64,000 nucleotides of DNA. Source: Primulina eburnea. Lineage: Eukaryota > Streptophyta > Magnoliopsida > Lamiales > Gesneriaceae. The position numbers were made by a program, and so were the translations under genes. The notes under the pieces were generated by a model. The model was not told the DNA's origin. It ran no database searches and was given only the letters and a program-made list of their open reading frames with translations. Numbering within the stretch: the stretch's first letter is position 1; every line of letters begins with the position of its first letter. The stretch is from the NCBI RefSeq assembly GCF_022965805.1, contig NC_133105.1, forward strand, positions 28,309,208-28,373,207, given 5' to 3'. Below are positions 18,457-64,000 of the stretch, one piece after another.

Positions 18457-18610
18457 CAGGTTTTTCTAAATCGTATGGTTTAATATTGAATAATTTATTT
18501 CTAACCACACAAGAAAATTTTTCAGAAAATTGATGTTGTAGTATCCCGATGCCTAAATTGAGTAATTATTGGATTAATTATATTCTGCGAGTTCGGAAGG
18601 AACGAACCAG

Positions 18611-18928
18611 GATCGGACCGTCCGAAGAGGTTCGGATCGTCCGAAGTGGGTTCGGATGGACCGTTCGGTTCGGTGTCAGACCGAGTCTTGTCAACAGTAG
18701 ACTGTGTCAGGGTTCGGATCGTCCGAAGAGGTTCGGATCGTCCGAAGACAGGTGGCTGGACACGTGGAAGACATGCAGAGTTCGGAACGTCCGAAGAGGT
18801 TCGGATCGTCCGAAGACAGGTGGCTGGACACGTGGAAGACATGCAGAGTTCGGAACGTCCGAAGTGGATCGGATCGTCCGAAGTGCACAGGATCGGATCT
18901 TCCGAAGTGGATCGGATCGTCCGATCGT
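18611..18928. repeat. Palindrome array in EL5 LTR (TTCGGA-N-CGTCCGAA)
   Basis: About ten copies of a 15-bp palindrome, consensus TTCGGATCGTCCGAA with A/T variation at the centre and GATCGGA variants, ending just 3 bp before the TATA box. Within it, 68 bp is duplicated in tandem (18728-18795 and 18796-18863), including ACAGGTGGCTGGACACGTGG, which holds a CACGTG core. The second copy of the array is at 24674-24991. Confidence 0.92.
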
Positions 18929-24599: not shown

Positions 24600-26011
24600 T
24601 GTAGTATCCCGATGCCTAAATTGAGTAATTATTGGATTAATTATATTCTGCGAGTTCGGAAGGAACGAACCAGGATCGGACCGTCCGAAGAGGTTCGGAT
24701 CGTCCGAAGTGGGTTCGGATGGACCGTTCGGTTCGGTGTCAGACCGAGTCTTGTCAACAGTAGACTGTGTCAGGGTTCGGATCGTCCGAAGAGGTTCGGA
24801 TCGTCCGAAGACAGGTGGCTGGACACGTGGAAGACATGCAGAGTTCGGAACGTCCGAAGAGGTTCGGATCGTCCGAAGACAGGTGGCTGGACACGTGGAA
24901 GACATGCAGAGTTCGGAACGTCCGAAGTGGATCGGATCGTCCGAAGTGCACAGGATCGGATCTTCCGAAGTGGATCGGATCGTCCGATCGTCGTCTATAA
25001 ATAGAGGCGCGAGGCTTCACTTTTCAATTACCAATTCCGAGAGTTCCAGAGCGTTTTAGTCGTTTCTGATGGGTTTCTAGCTTTTCCCGAGGTTCGGGCA
25101 CTAGCAGGGAGCTACTGGCTTTGTAGCGGAGCTGTGCTCTAGTTGGGAGCTAGCGGCATCAGTGGGCTGACTACGGACGCAGGTATGGTTCTAGGTTCCC
25201 TTGAGATTTGGAAGTATCTATTAGTCTAGTTAAGGCTTTTAGATGTGGTTTAGTGATATGGTATCACTTGGATTGTAGGCTTGATTCTAGGGCTGATTAC
25301 TAGGATCTACTGGTTTGAGGTACGGAAGTACTATCCGAGATATCCTGGTTGAGTATGCTTTACTATGTGTTGCATGTTTATGTGTTGCATTATTATCTGA
25401 CATATGATGCATGGTTTATTATGCGGCATTTGCATAATCATGTTGGGCCTGTTTATCTTTTGAGATAGCCTGTTCAGAGGGTGCTCAGCCCTCGGTTGTT
25501 GTGGATGGTTGGACCCCGTTGGCCGACGGTGGTCAGGATACCGGTATATCCACAGGTTTATGGTATGGGAGCCACCTCCTGGTGCGACGGCGCAGAGTGC
25601 TACATACCTTGACGTCATTTGCCTGAGCAGTTTTTCGTTATACCCAGACCCTGGTATCCAGTACATTTTGCATACATGCATGTCATAGTCTTGTATACTC
25701 ATTCTTTCGGTACTGAGCGTTTTAAGCTCACGTCCTCGGTTTATCTCTGTTTTGGACACCCTATTCGATGGGGCAGGTCTCAGGTTGGACGGTCCAGGAG
25801 GGAGAGGACAGGGAGCTAGCAGGGGTTGACCTGTAGTTGCTGGTATTTTATTCTTGGGATTTAGTTTGATTTGGTTGTTTTAGTATTCGTACTTACTGAT
25901 TCGATCGGGCTGTATATGTTGTTTTTTCCGCTGTTTATCTGATTCAGTTTTATTAAGTTAATTGCATGCTTAAGTTCTGATTAGTAGGTGATTCTGGAAC
26001 GGGTCACTACA
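24600..26011 (+). repeat. EL5 3' LTR
   Basis: Same length and ends as the 5' LTR; offset 6063 bp throughout. One difference seen. Contains the array at 24674-24991 and the TATA box at 24995. Followed by target duplication GATGT. Confidence 0.97.
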
Positions 26012-36903: not shown

Positions 36904-38123
36904 TGTAGTGACTCGTTCCAGAATCACCAACTAATCAGAACTTAAGCATGCAAAATTAACATTTAAAACTGAATCAGGTAAACAGCGGAAAAACAGTAAT
37001 ACAACCCAATCGAATCTGTAAGTACAAAATACTTAAACAACCAGATCGAACTAAATTCCAAGAACAAATACCAACAACTACAGGTCAACCTCTGTCAGCT
37101 CCCTGTCCGCTCCCTCCTGGACCGTCCAACCTGAGACCTGCCCCATCGAATAGGGTGTCCAAAACAGAGATAAACCGAGGACGTGAGCATAAAACGCTCA
37201 GCACCGAAAGCATGAGTATACAAGACTATGACATGCATGTATGCAAAATGTAATGGATACCAGGATCTGGGTATAACGAAATACTGCTCAGGTAAATGAC
37301 GTCAAGGTATGTAGCACTCTGCGCCGTCGCACCAGGAGGTGGCTCCCATACCAAAATAAACCTGTGGATATACCGGTGACCTGACCACCGTCGGCCAACG
37401 GGGTCCAACCATCTACAACAAACGAGGGCTGAGCACCCTCTCAACAGGCTATCTCAAAGATAATCAGGCTCAACATGATTATGCAAATGCCGCATAATAA
37501 ACCATGCATCATATGACAGATAATAATGCAACATATAAACATGCAACACATAGTAAAGCATACTCAATCCTGCTATCTCGGATAGTACTTTCGTACCTCA
37601 AACCAGTAGATCCTAGCAATCAGCCCTAGAATCAAGCCTGCGTCCGTAGTCAGCCCACTGATGCCGCTAGCTCCCAACTAGAGCACAGCTCCGCTACAAA
37701 ACCAGTAGCTCTCTGCTAGTGCCTGAACCTCGGGAAAAGACTAGAAACCCATCAGAAACGACTAAAACGCTCTGGAACACTCGGAATTGGCGAGTAAAAA
37801 GTGAAGCCTCGCGCCTCTATTTATAGACAACGATCGGTAGATCCGATCCACTTCGGAAGATCCGATCCGGCACACTTCGGACGATCCGAACCCTGATCGG
37901 ACGGTCCGAATCCTGCATGTCTTCCACGTGTCCAGCCACCTGTCTCGGACGATCCGAACCCTGATCGGACGATCCGAATCCTGCATGTCTTCCACGTGTC
38001 CAGCCACTTGTCTCGGACGATCCGAACCCTGATCGGACGATCCGAACCCTGTTCGGTCCTTCCGATCTCACTGAAATATAATTAATCCAATAATTAACTC
38101 CAATTAGGCATCGGGATACTACA
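36904..38123 (-). repeat. EL7 3' LTR
   Basis: On the minus strand begins TGTAGTATCCCGATGCC and ends GAGTCACTACA. Palindrome array 37830-38070 and TATA box (CTATAAATAG) at 37817-37826. Two of the array units carry the same ACGTGG/ATGCAGG linker as in EL5. Confidence 0.94.
37830..38070. repeat. Palindrome array in EL7 3' LTR
   Basis: About ten TTCGGA/TCGGACGATCCGAA units immediately upstream (minus strand) of the TATA box at 37817-37826. The 5' LTR array (43536-43793) has one more 20-bp unit. Confidence 0.9.
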
Positions 38124-42609: not shown

Positions 42610-43849
42610 TGTAGTGACCCGTTCCAGAATCACCTACTAATCAGAACTTAAGCATGCAAAATTAACATTTAAAACTGAATCAGGTAAACAGCGGAAAAAT
42701 AGTAATACAACCCAATAGAATCTGTAAGTACAAAATACTTAAACAACCAGATCGAACTAAATTCCAAGAACAAATACCAACAACTACAGGTCAACCTCTG
42801 TCAGCTCCCTGTCCGCTCCCTCCTGGACCGTCCAACCTGAGACCTGCCCCATCGAATAGGGTGTCCAAAACAGAGATAAACCGAGGACGTGAGCATAAAA
42901 CGCTCAGCACCGAAAGCATGAGTATACAAGACTATGACATGCATGTATGCAAAATGTACTGGATACCAGGATCTGGGTATAACGAAATACTGCTCAGGTA
43001 AATGAAGTCAAGGTATGTAGCACTCTGCGCCGTCGCACCAGGAGGTGGCTCCCATACCAAAATAAACCTGTGGATATACCGGTGACCTGACCACCGTCGG
43101 CCAACGGGGTCCAACCATCCACAACAAACGAGGGCTGAGCACCCTCTCAACAGGCTATCTCAAAGATAATCAGGCTCAACATGATTATGCAAATGCCGCA
43201 TAATAAACCATGCATCATATGACAGATAATAATGCAACATATAAACATGCAACACATAGTAAAGCATACTCAATCCTGCTATCTCGGATAGTACTTTCGT
43301 ACCTCAAACCAGTAGATCCTAGCAATCAGCCCTAGAATCAAGCCTGCGTCTGTAGTCAGCCCACTGATGCCGCTAGCTCCCAACTAGAGCACAGCTCCAC
43401 TACAAAACCAGTAGCTCTCTGCTAGTGCCTGAACCTCGGGAAAAGACTAGAAACCCATCAGAAACGACTAAAACGCTCTGGAACACTCGGAATTGGCGAG
43501 TAAAAAGTGAAGCCTCGCGCCTCTATTTATAAACAACGATCGGTAGATCCGATCCACTTCGGAAGATCCGATCCGGCACACTTCGGACGATCCGAACCCT
43601 GATCGGACGGTCCGAATCCTGCATGTCTTCCACGTGTCCAGCCACCTGTCTCGGACGATCCGAACCCTGATCGGACGATCCGAATCCTGCATGTCTTCCA
43701 CGTGTCCAGCCACCTGTCTCGGACGATCCGAACCCTGATCGGACGATCCGAACCCTGATCGGACGATCCGAACCCTGTTCGGTCCTTCCGATCTCACTGA
43801 AATATAATTAATCCAATAATTAACTCCAATTAGGCATCGGGATACTACA
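42610..43849 (-). repeat. EL7 5' LTR
   Basis: 1240 bp; same ends as the 3' LTR except ACCCG for ACTCG near the terminus. TATA position at 43523-43532 reads TTATAAATAG on the minus strand (one change). Array 43536-43793. Confidence 0.94.
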
Positions 43850-49593: not shown

Positions 49594-50797
49594 TGTAGTG
49601 ACCCGTTCCAGAATCACCTACTAATCAGAACTTAAGCATGCAAAATTAACATTTAAAACTGAATCAGGTAATACAGCGGAAAAACAGTAATACAATCCAA
49701 TCGAATCTGTAAGTACAAAATACTTAAACAACCAGATCGAACTAAATACCAAGAACGAATACCAATAACTACAAGTCAACCTCTGCCAGCTCCCTGTCCA
49801 CTCCCTCCTGGACCGTCCAACCTGAGACCTGCCCCATCGAATAGGGTGTCCAAAACAGAGATAAACCGAGGACGTGAGCATAAAACGCTCAGCACCGAAA
49901 GCATGAGTATAAAAGGCTATGACATGCATGTATGCAAAATGTACTGGATACCAGGATCTGGGTATAACGAAATACTGCTCAGGTAAAGGACGTCAAGGTA
50001 TGTAGCACTCTGCGCCGTCGCACCAGGAGGTGGCTCCCATACCAAAATAAACCTGTGGATATACCGGTGACCTGACCACCGTCGGCCAACGGGGTCCAAC
50101 CATCCACAACAAACGAGGGCTGAGCACCCTCTCAACAGGCTATCTCAAAGATAATCAGGCTCAACATGATTATGCAAATGCCGCATAATAAACCATGCAT
50201 CATATAACAGATAATAATGCAACATATAAACATGCAACACATAGCAAAGTATACTCAATCCTGCTATCTCGGATAGTACTTTCGTACCTCAAACCAGTAG
50301 ATCCTAGCAATCAGCCCTAGAATCAAGCCTGCGTCCGTAGTCAGCCCACTGATGCCGCTAGCTCCAAACTAGAGCACAACTCCGCTACAAAACCAGTAGC
50401 TCCCCGCTAGTACCTAAACCTCGGGAAAAGACTAGAAACCCATCAGAAACGACTAAAACGCTCTGGAACACTCGGAATTGGCGAGTAACAAATGAAGCCT
50501 CGCGCCTCTATTTATAGACAACGATCGGTAGATCCGATCCACTTCGGACGATTCGATCCGGCACACTTCGGACGATCCGAACCCTGATCGGACGATCCGA
50601 ATCCTGCATGTCTTCCACGTGTCCAGCCACCTGTCTTCGGACGATCCGAACCCTGATCGGACGATCCGAACCTTGCATGTCTTCCACGTGTCCAGCCACC
50701 TGTCTTCGGACGATCCGAACCCTGTTCGGTCCTTCCGATCCCACCGAAATAATATTTAATCCAATAATTAACTCAAATTAGGCATCGGGATACTACA
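49594..50797 (-). repeat. EL9 3' LTR
   Basis: 1204 bp, ends as in EL7. TATA box 50508-50517, palindrome array 50521-50740. Polypurine tract at 50798-50810 (TAGGGGGGGAGAA on the minus strand). Confidence 0.92.
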
Positions 50798-51681: not shown

Positions 51682-52401
51682 GATATGTTGAGATCTTGTG
51701 TGATGGATTTCGGGCCAGCTTGGCAGGATCATCTGCCACTGATAGAGTTTGCATACAACAACAGTTTTCATAGGAGTATTGGTATGTCTCCGTTTGAAGC
51801 ATTGTATGGTCGACGTTGTCGTACTCCATTGTTATGGGAAGAAGTCGGAGAACGACAGGTCGAGGGTCCGGAATTGATTCAGCAGGCCATGGACAAAGTT
51901 CTTGTGATCAAACAGCGGATTAAGACTGCTCAGGATCGACAAGCAAGTTATGCGAACTCCAAGCGCAGACCTCTTCATTTTGATGCAGGCGAGAAAGTGT
52001 TTCTCAAGGTATCACCTTTTCGGAGGATTCTGAGATTTGGACTCAAGGGTAAGCTATCTCCGAGATTCATTGGTCCTTTTGAGATCTTAGAATGTGTGGG
52101 AGATTTGGCCTACAGATTAGCTTTGCCACCGTATCTGTCTAGTGTTCACAATGTGTTTCATGTGTCCTTGCTGAGACGATACGTAGCGGATGAGTCTCAT
52201 GTTTTGCATCCGACAGAAGTTCAGCTGAATCCGGATTTGTCTTTTGTGGAAAGACCGGTTTCGATCTTAGACCGGAAGGATAAGGTACTGCGGAATAAGA
52301 CTATTCCTCTTGTCTTAGTGCAGTGGCAGCGCCGAGGTACTGAAGAAGCTACTTGGGAACTAGAGAGTCGCATGCGGTCAGAGCATCCAGAATTGTTCTA
52401 G
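51658..52401 (+). pseudogene. pol: EL10 integrase C-terminus and chromodomain
   Basis: 248 codons in frame with EL5 Pol from [11 protein letters not shown] to the terminal HPELF, without stops. Contains [16 protein letters not shown] (EL5: LF), [12 protein letters not shown] and the chromodomain-like end. Truncated at the N side by the rearrangement, so it has no start of its own. Confidence 0.92.
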
Positions 52402-52539: not shown

Positions 52540-53879
52540 TGTAGTATCCCGATGCCTAATTTGAGTTAATTATTGGATTAATTGTATTTCGGTGGGATCG
52601 GAAGGACCGAACCGGGTTCGGATCGTCCGAAGTTGGTTCGGATCGTCCGAAGTGGGTTCGGATCGTCCGTTCTGTTCGGAGTCAGACGAGTCATGTCATG
52701 TCAGAGTTCGGATCGTCCGATCAGGGTTCGGATCGTCCGAAGACAGGTGGCTGGACACGTGGAAGACATGCAATGTTCGGATCGTCCGAAGTGGATCGGA
52801 TCGTCCGAAGTGTACCGGATCGGAGCGTCCGAAGTGGATCGGATCGTCCGATCGTTGTCTATAAATAAAAGCGCGAGGCTTCACTTTTCACTCGCCAATT
52901 CTGAGAGTTCCAGAGCGTTTTAGTCGTTTCTGATGGGTTTCTAGTCTTTTCCCGAGGTTCGGGCACTAGCGGGGAGCTACTGGTTTTGTAGCGGAGCTGT
53001 GCTCTAGTTGGGGGCTAGCGGCATCAGTGGGCTGACTACGGACGCAGGTATAGTTCTGTGTTCCCTTTGAGATTTGGGAGTATCTATTAGTCTAGTTAAG
53101 GCTTTTAGATGTGGTTTAGTGATATGGTATCACTTGGATTGTAGGCTTGATTCTAGGGCTGATTGCTAGGATCTACTGGTTTGAGGTACGAAAGTACTAT
53201 CCGAGATAGCAGGATTGAGTATGCTTTACTATGTGTTGCATGTTTATATGTTGCATTATTATCTGTCATAATGATGCATGGTTTATTATGCGGCATTTGC
53301 ATAATCATGTTGAGCCTGATTATCTTTGAGATAGCCTGTTGAGAGGGTGCTCAGCCCTCGTTTGTTGTGGATGGTTGGACCCCGTTGGCCGACGGTGGTC
53401 AGGTCACCGGTATATCCACAGGTTTATTTTGGTATGGGAGCCACCTCCTGGTGCGACGGCGCAGAGTGCTACATACCTTGACGTCATTTACCTGAGCAGT
53501 ATTTCGATATACCCAGATCCTGGTATCCAGTTCATTTTGCATACATGCATGTCATAGTCTTGTATACTCATGCTTTCGGTGCTGAGCGTTTTATGCTCAC
53601 GTCCTCGGTTTATCTCTGTTTTGGACACCCTATTCGATGGGGCAGGTCTCAGGTTGGGCGGTCCAGGAGGGAGTGGACAGGGAGCTGGCAGAGGTTGACC
53701 TGTAGTTGTTGGTATTTATTCTTGGTATTTAGTTCGATCTGGTTGTTTAAGTATTTTGTACTTACAGATTCGATTGGGTTGTATTACTGTTTTTCCGCTG
53801 TTTACCTGATTCAGTTTTAAATGTTAATTTTGCATGCTTAAGTTCTGATTAGTAGGTGATTCTGGAACGGGTCACTACA
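52540..53879 (+). repeat. EL10 3' LTR
   Basis: 1340 bp, TGTAGTATCCCGATGCC...GGGTCACTACA. Palindrome array 52595-52853, TATA (TATAAATAA) at 52860-52868. Array has fewer linker repeats than EL5. Confidence 0.93.
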
Positions 53880-57897: not shown

Positions 57898-59349
57898 TGT
57901 AGTATCCCGATTCCTAATTTGAGTTAATTATTGGATTAATTATTTTCGGTGGGATCGGAAGGACCGAACCGGGTTCGGATCGTCCGATCATGGTTCGGAT
58001 CGTCCGAGCCAGATGTCGGATCGTCCGAGCCAGGTGGCTGGACCCGTGGCAGACATGCAGAATTCGGATCGTCCGAGCAAGGGTTCGGATCGTCCGAGAC
58101 AGGTGGCTGGACACGTAGAACGCATGCAAGGTTCGGATCGTCCGAAGTGGGTTCGGAGCGTCCGAAGTGTACCGGATCGGAGCTTCCGAAGTGGATCGGA
58201 TCGTCCGAACATTGGCTATAAATAGAGGTGCGAGGCTTCATTTCTTACTCGCCATTTCAGAGCGTTCCAGAGCGTTTTAGTCGTTTCTGAGAGGTTTCTA
58301 GTCTTTCCCGAGGTTCAGGCACTAGCAGGGAGCTACTGGCTTTGTAGCGGAGCTGTGCTCTAGTTGGGAGCTAGCGGCATCAGCGGGCTAGCGACGGACG
58401 AAGGTTTGGAATTATATCATTATTATTTCAGGATTATCTAGTTAAGTCTGGTAGATAAGTTTTAGTGATGGTTTTCACTTGATGAATAGGCTTGGAATAG
58501 ACCTGTTTGTCTGGTTTTCCAGTGGATTAGGATTGCAGTGATAGAGGTACGAAAGTACTATCCAAGATATCCTGGTCGAGTATACATTCTTATATGTGTT
58601 GCATGATTATGTGGTGCATTGATATATGTCATATGATGCATGCTATTATGTCACGCTGTATGATGCATGTTGCATTTCATGTTGAGCCGTATCTCCTTCG
58701 AGATAGCCTTTACTGTTGAGCTGTATCTCTTTCGAGATAAGCTATATCTTGTGGGGCCGCTCAGCCCTGTCTTGTCTTGTGGACGCATGGACACCGAGAG
58801 TACACAGTGGCCGACGGGTCGGGAGGGCTTCGGTGATCCGGGACATTTTTGGTCCACGTCTGTTCTTGTAGTGGATGCAGTGACCCAGAGGAGTACCGCG
58901 CGGCACTATCCACTTGGCGCCTCTAGACTGAGCATATTGAGATCCTTTGTTACTCCTGTTTCTTGACTACCCTGGTATCATATCATAGCATGTGCATTTC
59001 ATATAGGTTTGTATACTCATGCTTTTGTACTGGGCGTTCTTATCGCTCATGTCCTCGGTTTTGTTTATCTTGGACACCCCATTCCCACGGGGCAGGCCTC
59101 AGGTTGGACAGCTCAGGAGGAGGAGGAGGAGGACGTTGAGTAGCTGGTTGGTTTAGTTCTTCGGTATCTTTTTGATTCGATATGGTTGTACCGTATATTT
59201 CATTTTAGTTGAGTTGTCCTGGATTTTCGATTGGGTTGTATAACTATCTTTTGGTGACAGTTTTCCGCCTTTATTTCTGATTGTTTTTAATTAAGTTAAT
59301 CGCATGCTTAGTTCTTGATTAGTAGGTGATTCTGGAACGGGTCACTACA
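57898..59349 (+). repeat. EL11 3' LTR
   Basis: 1452 bp. Array of TTCGGATCGTCCGA(A/G) units at 57953-58213, then TATA box CTATAAATAG at 58216-58225. The array here has CCGAGCCAGGTGGCTGG linkers in place of CCGAAGACAGGTGG. The downstream half is rather different from the EL5 LTR. Confidence 0.93.
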
Positions 59350-60012
59350 CTTAAATCAATCTTGGAATACACAGAGGTACCTTGCAGTTGATCAAATAAA
59401 TCATCAATCCGTGGCAACGGATACTTATTCTTTATCGTAGCACGATTCAACTGCCGATAATCTATGCAGAGCCGCATAGAACCATCCTTCTTTTTGACAA
59501 AAAGAACTGGTGCTCCCCACGGGGACACACTGGGTCGAATATACCCCTTGTCAAGAAGATCCTGCAACTGCTGTTTCAATTCTTGCATCTCTGATGGAGC
59601 TAAACGATAAGGAGCTCTAGAGATTGGTGCCGTGCCTGGCACTAAATCAATGCCGAAATCCACTTCCCGAACGGGAGGAAAACCAGGAATCTCCTCGGGA
59701 AAAACATCCGGAAAATCGCAAACCACTGGAATGTCGCTGATACCGACACTATCTGCGGACGAATCAATAGCATATATAAGGTAGCCTTCCCCGCCCGACT
59801 CTAAAGCACGACAGGCTTTCAGAGCAGAAACCACAGGCATCGGGGGTCGCGCTCCCTCTCCATATAAAAACCAACTGTCGCCCTCAACTGGACGAAACTG
59901 CACAAACTTCTGATAAGAGTCCACAGTAGCTCTAAACACAGTCAGCACATCTATTCCCAGAATGCAATCAAAATCCTCCATCGCAAGAATCATCAAATTA
60001 GCAGTTAAAACA
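59350..60012 (-). pseudogene. pol: EL12: protease-RT fragment, probably the continuation of EL9
   Basis: Minus-strand frame without stops from [34 protein letters not shown] (end of protease) through [36 protein letters not shown] to the RT start ([41 protein letters not shown]), where EL11 ends. It is nearly identical to EL7 over this part. The right side is cut by EL13 at 60013 (left duplication candidate AAACA). Orientation and family match EL9, and the gap between EL9 and EL12 is filled by EL10/EL11. Confidence 0.9.
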
Positions 60013-60503
60013 TGAAGAACCTAAAGGGGGGGTGAATAGGTTCTTTTAGGCCCTTTAGCGTTTTTAAAACGAGTTTGCAAAAATTGCAAGCGGAAGACTT
60101 GAGGGACAATCACAAATAAAATGAATGCGTAAAGTAAGTGCGTAAAATAAATGCGTAGTAAAGTAAATGCGTAAAGTAAAGAGGGATAGAGATGTTTATG
60201 GAAGTTCGACGAAGAATCGTCTACGTCTCCCCTTCTCGATGAGGATCGAGGTATCACTATATCGACTTGGCTTTAGGAGCTCCAAGCTAGCTTTTACAAC
60301 CACGCCTCGATGCGTCTACTTGGCCTTGAGGGCTCCAAGGATAGCCACGAACTTTACAACCCACTCGAGAGTATTACTTTCACTCTTTTTCTACAACTCT
60401 TTTGATATTACAACTCTTTTAATCAACGCACACAAGAGATAGTAGAAAGCTTTGTAAGAGACAAGAGAGTGGAGTGGGATGATTGAAAATGCATCCTCAA
60501 AGG

Positions 60504-60515
60504 CCTATTTATACT
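60504..60515 (-). promoter_or_regulatory. TATA box of EL13 LTR
   Basis: AGTATAAATAGG on the minus strand, about 15 bp past the palindrome array. Confidence 0.8.
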
Positions 60516-60529
60516 AGTCTTGGACGCCA

Positions 60530-61010
60530 AGGTTCGGATCTTCTGTTTATGCTTCGGAACGTCCGATGTGATTGAAATCAATTTCCGTAATTTTGGGATG
60601 ACTTCGGATCGTCCGTTCTTGACTTCGTAGGGTCCGAACATATGCTTCGGAGGGACCGATCCAGCTTCGTATCTTCCGAACAGTTCTTTCAGACAGTGTG
60701 TGAACAGCTTCGGAAGGTCCGAACTCCAGTTCGTACCGTCCGAACATTCCCGCGTTTCCGGAGATTTGAAATCTTCAACACTTCGTAGCGTCCGAAATGT
60801 CTTCGTAGCGTCCGAAATCTTACTCGATCAATCAGTCATATCAATTTGTCTCCGCATTGAAGTGATTTGATTGCTTGTGTTCGGAACGTCCGATCACGTC
60901 TTCGGAACGTCCGAACGCTCTCCTCGCAGCTTCCGAACAGCTTCTATTTTGCTTCTGAATTGCAAAATTTCGGACCGTCCGAACCGAATGTCGGATCTTC
61001 CGAACGTAAC
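60530..61010. repeat. Palindrome array in EL13 LTR
   Basis: About fifteen units of the kind CTTCGGAACGTCCGAAC, CTTCGTAGCGTCCGAAA and CTTCGGATCGTCCGTT, spaced 15-50 bp. The consensus core TTCGGA/TTCGTA-N-CGTCCGAA is the same as in the EL5 family, but spacers are unrelated. Confidence 0.88.
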
Positions 61011-61161
61011 CTGTTCTTAATTTCCTGCATGCCTCAATATAAAACATTAGTACATTTTTAATCCAAGTTTTGGTATCATCAAAACAAAAACTTTGGGATA
61101 TGTTACAGCATTAAAAACATTAATCTCATCCTCGAGATTTGTATGCGTTTAAGGCGTAACA

Positions 61162-61469
61162 ATCTCCCCCTTTTTGATGATCACAAAACTTGGTTAAAAA
61201 TTGAGATAACAATAATCAACATAATCGAAATGGTTATTAAATAACTCCCCCTTAATCAAATAACAAGTCTAAGAGGTTGAATTAAGGCGAATTTAATAAC
61301 CAATTAATAGCAATTTTAACCAAATAAATTCTCCCCCTTTTTGTGATAAGCAAAAAGACATAAGCATAAAGAGAGACAAATAAACAGGTAAAATATCCAC
61401 TAATAAATGCAAGTCTTTTATACAATGATGCATAAAGATAAAATAAACAAAAATAACAAAAAACATAAT
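61162..61469 (-). other. Multiple polypurine tracts of EL13
   Basis: On the minus strand, three purine tracts: AAAAAGGGGGAGAT next to the LTR (61163-61176), TTAAGGGGGAGT near 61245-61256, and AAAAAGGGGGAGAA near 61330-61343. Another GAGGGGGAGTA lies near 63289-63299, before the RNase H gene end. Multiple tracts are a Sirevirus hallmark. Confidence 0.8.
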
Positions 61470-62741
61470 CTAAGAATCCGCATCCCGCGACTCTCTATGT
61501 CTCCTCATCTCAGCCTCGATGGAATCCAGACGCGAAGAAGTCTCGGTATGATGGCGCTCTAAGGTAGACTCTAAAAGAGAAAAACGAGTGTCGAAACGAG
61601 TCTCCAATCGCTCGAGATACTCGAAAATCCGATCGTAGGGTCCAGAGGGAGCAGGCGGAGTGAAGCCATGAGTAAGGTCATCCATGGTCATCAAAGGAGT
61701 GCTAATAGGGTCGGGAACACGCTGATGGGATGAAGAGGGAATATCAACCGAAGGGGTAGGAGTGGTACCCGTAGTAGGGGGACCAGCGGGAAATCCTCTC
61801 GTCTGAACGTGAGGAGGAAGGAGACCGAAGGGAACATGAAAGTGTTCGGTCGGACGATAGGACGCAAAGATGCGATCCTTGTCGATGACCCAAGAGGATA
61901 AGACGGGATTCCAAGAGAGTCCCATCTTAACAACAGTATCATGGTCGATAGTCTCGCGAGGAGAAATAGATAAGGATTCTTCATCTGTAAAGTCAATGCC
62001 CAAATGGGCTAGAATCCGGTTAATGAACCGGCCAAATGGAAAAGAGACGCGAGTAGAAGAAGCCGCGTACTCCATGGCGTACATAAGAAAACGGGGAAGG
62101 TTAAAAGGACGCTGGGAGACTAAATAATAGAGAATGTACAGATCGAGATATTTGCAAGTGGAGAGGTCTCCACTGCGAGGAACAATAGAAGAAGTGATGA
62201 GCTTCAGAACAAGCTGAAGCTGAGGAGGAAGGTCCTTCGCATGAGGACGGTCATCGGCAGGAGTAGGCGGACGACCGAAGATGGTGGTCAAGGCAGTGAC
62301 TCGATCAAAAGTAGGGTCATTCTCAGTCCAAGACTGAGAAAAGAACTCACTCGGTCCGTCTCGAGGAAGATCGAACCAAGTGGAGAGGTCGGCGGTAGAA
62401 AAAGAAATGAACCGACCCTGAACAATGGTAACAACACGAGTGTCATCACCACCAAGAACTAAGGAAAAGTTCGCATAGAACTGATGTATGAGAGAGGGGT
62501 AGATGAGATCGGGTACGGAAGGTAGAAAGAAGTTTCCCCAACGTTGAGACTCAATAAGAGTAATCAACGTAAAGAAATTTGCACGAAGATAATCGGTGTG
62601 AAGGGTACGACCAGGCAGAATGTTACGGGTTTCGAATTCAGGTGGGGTAGGACGAGGGTTGGGTGGTTGGGTAAGATCATGGTGAAAGGCACCGTGACGA
62701 GGGCGAACATTTCGGCCAGCTACGTTACGGCGCGGAGGCAT
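61470..62741 (-). CDS. EL13 extra ORF (env-position protein, plant TE-specific domain)
   Basis: Intact 423-residue protein from ATG 62741. N-terminus basic (MPPRRNVAGRNVRPRHG), then a central region of about 200 residues (NFFTLITLIESQRWGNFF, IHQFYANFSLV, TVVQGRFISFSTADL-like stretch, LSTWFDLPRDG, VPRSGDLSTCKYLDLYILYYLV, LPRFLMYAMEYA) resembling the domain that Pfam calls putative plant transposon protein; this is from memory, not searched. A Pro/Thr-rich linker follows, then a C-terminal coiled coil (about residues 365-415: YLERLETRFDTRFSLLESTLERHH...). I see no signal peptide and no clear membrane segment, so an envelope role is not supported by sequence. In Sireviruses an ORF at this place is called env-like. 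It has its own array and TATA box upstream (62816-63165). Function unknown. Confidence 0.85.
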   Translation of the reverse strand: MPPRRNVAGRNVRPRHGAFHHDLTQPPNPRPTPPEFETRNILPGRTLHTDYLRANFFTLITLIESQRWGNFFLPSVPDLIYPSLIHQFYANFSLVLGGDDTRVVTIVQGRFISFSTADLSTWFDLPRDGPSEFFSQSWTENDPTFDRVTALTTIFGRPPTPADDRPHAKDLPPQLQLVLKLITSSIVPRSGDLSTCKYLDLYILYYLVSQRPFNLPRFLMYAMEYAASSTRVSFPFGRFINRILAHLGIDFTDEESLSISPRETIDHDTVVKMGLSWNPVLSSWVIDKDRIFASYRPTEHFHVPFGLLPPHVQTRGFPAGPPTTGTTPTPSVDIPSSSHQRVPDPISTPLMTMDDLTHGFTPPAPSGPYDRIFEYLERLETRFDTRFSLLESTLERHHTETSSRLDSIEAEMRRHRESRDADS

Positions 62742-62815
62742 AGTGAGTAGTGAGTGTTTTGTGTGGGGAAAGAAAGAAGGAGTGAATGAGCAAATAAATC
62801 AGAGGATCCGAACGC

Positions 62816-62825
62816 CTATTTATAG
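62816..62825 (-). promoter_or_regulatory. Internal TATA box before the EL13 extra ORF
   Basis: CTATAAATAG on the minus strand, identical to the TATA box of EL5, EL7 and EL11 LTRs, 75 bp upstream of ATG 62741. Flanked by GGC and GCC as in the EL13 LTR (GTATAAATAGGCC). Expected start about 30 bp downstream, giving a leader of about 45 nt. Confidence 0.7.
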
Positions 62826-62827
62826 GC

Positions 62828-63165
62828 CATGTTCGGACGGTCCGAACAAGAGTTCGGAAGGTCCGGAATTTGAACGGAACGGTTAGCTGGCAGGAGGTTC
62901 GGACGATCCGATTAATACTCGGACGATCCGATCCTAGAACGGAGGCTACGAAGCGTAAACGGAGGGTCCGAAGTCTGACAATCAGGCATGGGAAGGCGCG
63001 AACATTAAATGACATCGGAAGGAGTTCGGACGATCCGATGTTTGTTCGGATGGTCCGAAGAAGGAATCGGAGGTTCTGGAACCTATGGTCAGGTTCGGAC
63101 GATCCGAACACGTTCGGTGGATCCGAAGTGAAACGAAGCATCCGAAAAAGAACGGTGATTCCGAA
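62828..63165. repeat. Internal palindrome array of EL13
   Basis: About ten to twelve units such as TTCGGACGGTCCGAA, TTCGGACGATCCGAT, TTCGGATGGTCCGAA and TTCGGACGATCCGAA between the end of Pol and the extra ORF. It is the same class as the LTR array, but not a copy of it: the spacers are different. Confidence 0.88.
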
Positions 63166-63335
63166 GTGGCCAAGATGAGGAACACCTAAAATTTAAAATA
63201 TTTAGCACATAAATGAATGTTGAGCCATAATTATGGATAAATACAATTAATTTGTATTATCCGACATTATAATGCTCACATTAATAATACTCCCCCTCAA
63301 TTTAACAAATATGTACGAGAGTATTCGACTAGTGT
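63166..63335 (-). other. EL13 spacer between pol and the internal array
   Basis: AT-rich; contains a GAGGGGGAGTA purine tract at about 63289-63299. No gene. Confidence 0.7.
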
Positions 63336-64000
63336 TTACAACTCAATCATGCCAAGTTCACCACGCAAACGAATAAAAGTAGATTCATCTAGTGGTTTTG
63401 TAAAAATATCAGCAATTTGATTCTTGGTGTCAACATAGTGAAGTTCAACATCATTTTGCTCAATGTGATCACGAATGAAATGATGTCGAATGTCAATATG
63501 TTTAGTACGAGAATGTTGAACTGGATTCTTTGTTAGACATATGGTGCTTGTATTATCACAAAAGATTGGAATTTTTGAAAAAGTAACACCATAGTCGAGT
63601 AATTGATACTTCATCCAAAGAATTTGTGCACAACAACTACCGGCAGCCATATACTCGGCCTCGGTCGTTGAAAGTGCAACACAGTTTTGCTTTTTAGAAA
63701 ACCATGACACCAAGCAATTTCCCAAAAAGAAACAAGTTCCACTAGTGCTCTTTCTATCCACCTTATATCCTCCAAAGTCGGCATCACAGTAAGCTTTTAA
63801 ATCGAAAAATGAGTTCTTAGAATACCATAATCCGAGATTTGGAGTATTTGAAAGATATTTGAAAATGCGTTTTAAGGCGAATAAGTGTGATTCCTTTGGA
63901 CATGATTGAAATCGTGCACACAAGCAAACACTAAACATAATGTCAGGTCTACTAGCAGTCGCATAGAGTAGGGAGCCAATCATGCTACGAAATAACTTTT
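63336..64000 (-). CDS. pol: EL13 pol, C-terminal part: RT end and RNase H (partial)
   Basis: Open frame entering from the right edge and ending at TAA 63336. Contains SMIGSLLYATASRPDIMFSVCLCARFQ (end of copia RT), LKRIFKYLSNTPNLGLWY, RNase H YCDADFGGYKVDRKSTSGTCFFLG (D), SWFSKKQNCVALSTTEAEYMAA (E), FCDNTSTICLTKNPVQHSRTKHIDIRHHFIRD (D), and the end DIFTKPLDESTFIRLRGELGMI. All are typical of Ty1/copia. No defects in the visible part. Confidence 0.95.
   Translation of the reverse strand, partial: KLFRSMIGSLLYATASRPDIMFSVCLCARFQSCPKESHLFALKRIFKYLSNTPNLGLWYSKNSFFDLKAYCDADFGGYKVDRKSTSGTCFFLGNCLVSWFSKKQNCVALSTTEAEYMAAGSCCAQILWMKYQLLDYGVTFSKIPIFCDNTSTICLTKNPVQHSRTKHIDIRHHFIRDHIEQNDVELHYVDTKNQIADIFTKPLDESTFIRLRGELGMIEL

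What the first reader, a model, noticed from the sequence alone, without database searches (positions are those of the whole stretch)
61470..63165. Extra ORF of EL13 appears to have its own promoter built like the LTR U3
Upstream of ATG 62741 lie CTATAAATAG (62816-62825) and an array of 10-12 palindromes (62828-63165), in the same order and spacing as in the EL13 LTR (array, TATA). Sequence outside the motifs is not copied from the LTR. This suggests that the ORF is transcribed separately under the same control as the genomic RNA. I do not know of this having been described for the Sirevirus env-like ORF.
Basis: partly seen in the sequence, partly recalled or inferred. Interest (0 to 1): 0.88.

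Follow-up and report, generated by a model that had tools for sequence, protein, structure and literature searches.

The report
Built-in promoter of retrotransposon's third gene
A plant jumping gene of the Sirevirus type carries, in front of its third (envelope-like) gene, a row of DNA palindromes and a TATA box arranged as in its main promoter; these motifs vary much less among copies than the DNA between them, which suggests that the gene has its own switch.

Summary
On the minus strand, 83 nt before ATG 62741, lies a TATA box (CTATAAATAG), and upstream of it 13 near-palindromes TCGGANNNTCCGA, as in the LTR of the same element. It is not a quirk of one copy: 50 of 50 examined genomic copies keep 8-11 boxes and 49 of 50 keep TATAAATAG. 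Box cores show five to ten times less diversity than the spacers between them, and no rotation of the box mask is as low. The leader has no ATG in 50 of 50. Outside the motifs the block is not copied from the element's own LTR; its proximal 70 bp resemble Ty3 LTRs of the same genome more closely.

The core idea is not new. Bousios et al. 2010 (PMC2829016) described CGG-CCG palindromes in Sirevirus LTRs and upstream of ENV in nine elements, and argued for an internal promoter without finding one. Added here: a TATA box with an AUG-free leader, evidence of constraint among copies, a negative control, and the same motif in Ty3 LTRs. No RNA evidence was available: an internal promoter is likely (about 0.7), not shown.

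The parts
61470..62741 (-). Third ORF, 423 aa, Pfam PF20167 (Transposase_32)
   Evidence: ORF list; Pfam E=3.2e-17; piN/piS 0.098 among 30 copies chosen by protein similarity
62742..62815 (-). Short CT-rich leader between TATA and ATG; no ATG (50 of 50 copies), no AG (window copy)
62786..62796 (-). Expected transcription start zone, about 30 nt below the TATA box (inference, not observed)
   Evidence: distance rule recalled; no RNA data
62816..62825 (-). TATA box CTATAAATAG
   Evidence: TATAAATAG kept in 49 of 50 copies
62799..62811 (-). One 1-mismatch box downstream of the TATA box
62833..63164 (-). Array of 13 near-palindromes TCGGANNNTCCGA, many 19-21 bp apart
   Evidence: constraint
63290..63296 (-). 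Extra polypurine tract core GGGGGAG upstream of the block
63336..64000 (-). 3' end of pol; stop 594 nt before the ORF start
61164..61337 (-). Three polypurine tract cores GGGGGAG downstream of the ORF (first G at 61337, 61251, 61170)
60013..61161 (-). 3' LTR of the element, 99.9% identical over 1148 bp to the 5' LTR at L009:3911-5059; TSD TGTTT
60534..61003 (-). Palindrome array in the LTR U3
60505..60513 (-). LTR TATA box TATAAATAG
   Evidence: kept in 30 of 30 copies
57955..58225 (+). Same type of array plus CTATAAATAG in the LTR of a Ty3 element next door

Best explanation
The block 62742-63165 is an internal RNA polymerase II promoter of a Sirevirus-type (Ty1/copia) element. A host factor that binds the palindrome TCGGANNNTCCGA, probably as dimers set about two helical turns apart, activates both the LTR and this internal TATA box. 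The internal promoter makes a short separate mRNA with an AUG-free leader for the 423-aa ORF; the 3' LTR would end the mRNA. Shown: the motifs, their order, their presence in 50 of 50 copies, and the conservation of boxes and TATA against spacers. Inferred: factor binding, start of transcription, separate mRNA, shared regulation.
For: Motifs far above chance. 30 of 30 copies and 20 of 20 further copies keep 8-11 boxes; TATAAATAG in 49 of 50. Diversity in 50 copies: cores 0.0076, spacers 0.0740, 0 of 302 mask rotations as low, CTATAAATAGG 0.0036. In the LTR array of 30 copies: 0.0005 against 0.0573, 0 of 449 rotations. Box steps of 19-21 bp make 211 of 406 gaps in 50 copies; box to TATAAA is 8 bp in 48 of 50. 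Leader: 0 of 50 copies with an ATG, whereas an mRNA from an acceptor-like site upstream would carry 5-8 upstream ATGs in the 45 of 50 copies where the site was found. No read-through: 3, 9 and 11 stops in the three frames of the 594 nt after pol. ORF under constraint: piN/piS 0.098. Another PF20167 family lacks the block: 0 of 30 with boxes. 269 genomic matches of the 33-nt core with up to 3 mismatches, reversed control 0.
Against: No RNA, CAGE or reporter data. The copies are young and similar (about 92-100% identical over the block), so this is not deep conservation. The 30 copies were the best by ORF protein score and the 20 others come from hits to P0001, so ORF constraint is over-stated. 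By segregating sites alone the contrast in the ORF array is modest: 9/110 against 47/237 in 30 copies (Fisher p=0.007), 17/90 against 83/213 in 50. The lowest rotations come close to the observed value (0.0100 against 0.0095; 0.0099 against 0.0076). The start zone 25-45 nt below the TATA is variable (0.130). Lack of ATG in the leader is expected in 92% of shuffles. The array could also be an enhancer or a silencing target.
Confidence: 0.7

Rival explanations
1. The ORF is expressed from a spliced genomic RNA, as reported for Bagy2 and predicted for Athila; the array is an enhancer or epigenetic element for the element as a whole.
For: A U-rich TTTTAG|GTG acceptor-like site lies about 445 nt upstream of the ATG; it was found in 45 of 50 copies. 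Splicing is reported or predicted for other plant env-like ORFs (PMC2829016 section 20; passage in PMC7264820).
Against: A leader from that site would carry 5-8 upstream ATGs. There is no AG between TATA and ATG in the window copy. It does not explain a near-invariant TATA box 8 bp from the last box.
Confidence: 0.15
2. The block is a relic of an LTR U3, from its own or another element, brought in when the ORF was acquired; it has no present function.
For: A PPT core precedes the block as in an LTR. The proximal 71 bp align with Ty3-like LTR L090 with score 77 (L092 71, L091 58), against 37 with the own LTR; TCCGAACATGGCCTATAAATAG is shared exactly with L090-L092.
Against: A dead relic would not keep its boxes and TATA far less variable than the spacers between them. 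Extra PPTs are a normal Sirevirus trait (PMC2829016). No shuffle null was run for the L090-L092 scores.
Confidence: 0.1
3. Boxes are kept for silencing or chromatin reasons (CpG island, small-RNA target), not to drive the ORF.
For: Both arrays have raised CpG ratios (1.65 and 1.64). In maize, LTR palindromes are small-RNA hotspots (passage in PMC5311732).
Against: An element gains nothing obvious from keeping a silencing target; a precisely placed TATA plus leader is not predicted. Non-CpG core positions are conserved too.
Confidence: 0.05

Closest known systems
Repeated motifs (RM) of Sireviruses, Bousios et al. 2010, PMC2829016 (passages seen; sections 9 and 20 read)
   Same: Palindromes with CGG-CCG core in the LTR upstream of TATA and again upstream of ENV; HOPIE's RM is CGGACCGTCCG, Osr9's TTTTCGGACWTRTCCGAAAA; internal promoter hypothesis supported
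   Different: The passages and sections seen report no TATA box before ENV and no test of box against spacer conservation between copies, and call the RM Sirevirus specific (against classic Ty1/copia); here it also sits in Ty3 LTRs
Grande gene 23 own promoter (Gomez-Orte 2013, as cited in PMC7264820; original not read)
   Same: Accessory gene between pol and 3' LTR with its own promoter
   Different: Antisense; another element type; nothing seen here on its resemblance to the LTR promoter
Foamy virus internal promoter (recalled; search listing only)
   Same: Second promoter inside an LTR retroelement for 3' genes
   Different: Animal retrovirus, promoter inside env, responds to a viral transactivator (recalled)
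SIRE1 env expression by stop codon suppression (as cited in PMC2829016)
   Same: Env-like ORF 3' of pol in a Sirevirus
   Different: Here pol and ORF are 594 nt apart with stops in all frames, so read-through cannot serve

Membership tests
Sirevirus (Ty1/copia) | Copia order: integrase before RT (rve, then RVT_2), copia gag | tested here: met
Sirevirus (Ty1/copia) | PBS TGGTATCAGAGC (initiator Met tRNA; assignment recalled) | tested here: met
Sirevirus (Ty1/copia) | Multiple PPT copies upstream of the 3' LTR | tested here: met
   4 GGGGGAG cores
Sirevirus (Ty1/copia) | PolyC-rich signal and conserved 5' LTR/internal junction | tested here: inconclusive
   CACCCCCCC near the LTR end seen; not compared with the published alignment
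Sirevirus (Ty1/copia) | CGG-CCG palindromes upstream of TATA in the LTR | tested here: met
   but not exclusive, since Ty3 LTRs have them too
Sirevirus (Ty1/copia) | Place of RT in a Sirevirus clade | not tested
   no tree built
Envelope-like ORF | Position 3' of pol, sense strand | tested here: met
Envelope-like ORF | Transmembrane segment | tested here: not met
   best 19-residue Kyte-Doolittle mean 1.02; crude test
Envelope-like ORF | Coiled coil | tested here: inconclusive
   C-terminal helix 367-421 in a low-confidence model (mean pLDDT 38.7)
Internal Pol II promoter | TATA box and upstream sites kept among copies | tested here: met
Internal Pol II promoter | Capped transcript starting there | not testable with these tools
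   no RNA data held

The most novel reading that the evidence does not exclude
One palindrome code, paired boxes about 20 bp apart before CTATAAATAG, is shared across two retrotransposon superfamilies in this genome. The Sirevirus ORF promoter is a module related to Ty3 LTR promoters rather than to its own LTR, so that Ty3 LTR, Ty1 LTR and the internal ORF promoter answer to a single host factor and promoter modules pass between superfamilies.
Probability: 0.3. Interest if true: 0.72.

Novelty: new member of a known kind. Interest (0 to 1): 0.52.

Why it matters
How plant env-like ORFs are expressed is still unsettled; for Sireviruses other than SIRE1 the papers seen here offer only a hypothesis of an internal promoter. 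Here is a defined candidate (TATA, leader, boxes) with conservation between copies, in a young family where the promoter core has 269 genomic matches, so one RNA dataset or reporter test would settle it. The same palindrome in Ty3 LTRs also bears on what reads these motifs: a common host factor rather than a Sirevirus speciality.

Tried and rejected
LTR duplication as origin of the block: rejected, no similarity to the own LTR outside boxes and TATA. Pol read-through or frameshift into the ORF: rejected, stops in every frame. ATGA stop/start coupling at the gag/pol junction: looked real, rejected, since the pol frame is open upstream in a 64-nt overlap and reads WYLDSGCSRH. Structure of the ORF protein: model too poor to use; no fold search made. 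Homologs elsewhere: two proteins at E<=0.001 among 5027 candidates, P0001 from an unnamed source contig and P0002 from Henckelia pumila. An ORF set from copies found by the promoter block: not obtained. Other families of Sirevirus in this genome and other plant genomes: not tested.

Full report
WHAT IS THERE. The window (C5:28309208-28373207 of an 812-Mb genome of an unnamed host) ends inside a young Ty1/copia element on the minus strand. Its 3' LTR is 60013-61161; the 5' LTR lies outside the window at L009:3911-5059 and is 99.9% identical over 1148 bp; the target-site duplication is TGTTT and the primer site TGGTATCAGAGC. Gag and pol carry copia domains in copia order. Between pol (stop at 63336) and the LTR lies a sense ORF of 423 aa (62741-61470) with Pfam PF20167. 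Four GGGGGAG polypurine cores, one before and three after the ORF, fit the multiple-PPT trait of Sireviruses (PMC2829016). No RT tree was built, so 'Sirevirus' rests on these traits.

THE OBSERVATION. CTATAAATAG is at 62816-62825 on the minus strand. Upstream lie 13 boxes matching TCGGANNNTCCGA with up to 2 mismatches; 62742-63335 holds 15 in all, and Markov shuffles give 0.57 on average, at most 5. The LTR has 15 such boxes in the same order before its own TATAAATAG. Box steps of 19-22 bp are the commonest in both. The array-to-TATA distance differs (8 bp against about 20-40 bp). With the boxes masked, the best match of the block to the own LTR is the TATA (score 22; null maximum 29).

OTHER COPIES. 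The ORF protein gave 99 scored hits of 2415 candidates, all 98-100% identical and full length; 3 of the 99 carry a stop. I fetched the best 30, which include the window's own copy: 30 of 30 have 9-11 boxes (at most 1 mismatch) and TATAAATAG at -83 or -84. To reach more diverged copies I searched with P0001, a 52% identical protein of unnamed origin (123 scored of 835), and took 20 of the 123: 20 of 20 have 8-11 boxes; 19 of 20 have TATAAATAGG and one TATAAACAGG. Their identity to the window stretch is about 92-97%. The 33-nt promoter core has 269 genomic matches with up to 3 mismatches, its reversed control 0.

CONSTRAINT. In the 30 copies the box cores of the ORF array have diversity 0.0095 against 0.0505 in the spacers (0 of 346 mask rotations as low, though the lowest is 0.0100; by segregating sites 9/110 against 47/237, p=0.007). 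The LTR array has 0.0005 against 0.0573 (0 of 449; 1/130 against 65/320, p=8e-10). In all 50 copies the ORF array has 0.0076 against 0.0740 (0 of 302, lowest 0.0099; sites 17/90 against 83/213), CTATAAATAGG 0.0036, the first 60 nt of the ORF 0.032, and the 214 nt upstream of the array 0.026. The contrast holds for CpG and non-CpG positions apart. The zone 25-45 nt below the TATA is variable (0.130), so the start zone itself is not conserved. The ORF has piN/piS 0.098 in 30 copies, all open; this overstates constraint because the copies were ranked by protein score.

LEADER AND ALTERNATIVES. From TATA to ATG there is no ATG in 50 of 50 copies, though a leader of this composition lacks one in 92% of shuffles, and no AG in the window copy. 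A splice acceptor-like TTTTAG|GTG upstream would leave 5-8 upstream ATGs in 45 of 50 copies; it was not found in 5. Read-through from pol is excluded by stops in every frame.

NEGATIVE CONTROL. The best 30 of 150 scored PF20167 hits (3949 candidates) belong to another family; 0 of 30 have a box or CGG-CCG palindrome in 700 bp upstream of the ATG, and 2 of 30 have a TATA-like match. In 6 of the 30 the first in-frame ATG lies inside the frame (9 or 39 nt before the domain), so their 700 bp start later. The element type of these ORFs was not established; they may lie just downstream of an LTR, so they are an imperfect control.

A WIDER CODE. All nine arrays of at least four boxes in the window have a TATAAATA beside them: two in this element and seven in stretches alike to the LTRs of one Ty3 family. 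I call that family chromovirus-like because of SH3_Tf2-1 matches and, in one of its pieces (51685-52401), a Chromo match below Pfam's cut-off. Genome-wide there are 24,364 exact paired boxes, reversed control 0; of the first 50 distinct places, many of them copies of one another, 40 are 19-22 bp apart (counted by hand). Three further LTRs (L090-L092), partly similar to that Ty3 LTR, share TCCGAACATGGCCTATAAATAG exactly with the ORF promoter; they align over about 71-76 bp with scores 77, 58 and 71, while the window's Ty3 LTR gives 54 and the own LTR 37. The shared ACATGGC spacer lies outside box and TATA. No shuffle null was run for these three; with boxes masked, the window's Ty3 LTR is no closer than shuffles. 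Chance or convergence is not excluded.

KNOWN OR NEW. I saw passages of Bousios et al. 2010 (PMC2829016) and read its sections 9 and 20. [quoted passage not shown] The 2016 Genome Research paper on maize LTR palindromes is not held. Apart from PMC2829016 itself, the searches for Sirevirus with internal promoter (4 papers), Sirevirus with TATA and env, env-like with subgenomic and promoter, envelope-like with own promoter (20 of 25 listed) and chromovirus with palindrome and TATA listed no title or start of abstract that describes such a promoter. Of these papers I saw passages of PMC3414828, PMC6696364, PMC11728184, PMC7264820, PMC11963269, PMC3599292 and PMC3485330, none of which described one for Sireviruses; MASiVEdb names an internal promoter as one proposed mode. 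Only open-licence papers are held. Grande gene 23 has its own promoter, antisense (passage in PMC7264820).

VERDICT. A likely internal promoter (0.7), well conserved among copies of a young family; the concept is from 2010 or before, and the TATA box, leader, constraint and Ty3 link are the additions. RNA evidence is missing.

Noticed in passing
window 18593-18924, 24656-24987, 37781-38065, 43487-43791, 50472-50738, 52598-52851, 57955-58208: The same palindrome arrays with a TATAAATA beside them sit in stretches alike to LTRs of one Ty3 family; PMC2829016 calls the motif Sirevirus specific (its comparison was with other Ty1/copia elements).
   Followed up: partly
L009:2323-2386 (minus strand): Gag and pol are in different frames with a 64-nt overlap, the pol frame reading WYLDSGCSRH across it; the junction is the same in 15 of 18 copies checked, and was not found at the expected place in 3. 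Possible programmed frameshift.
   Followed up: partly
L090-L092: Ty3-like LTRs share 22 nt of core promoter exactly with the Sirevirus ORF promoter.
   Followed up: partly
L040-L069: A second PF20167 family without palindromes upstream; its element type was not worked out.
   Followed up: partly
window 62742-62790: The leader comes in at least two forms among copies (GCTCATTCACTCC and GCCAATTCACATC), suggesting subfamilies.
   Followed up: no
window 59350-60008: The element is nested in a Ty3 pol gene, 97-99% identical to two others in the window.
   Followed up: no
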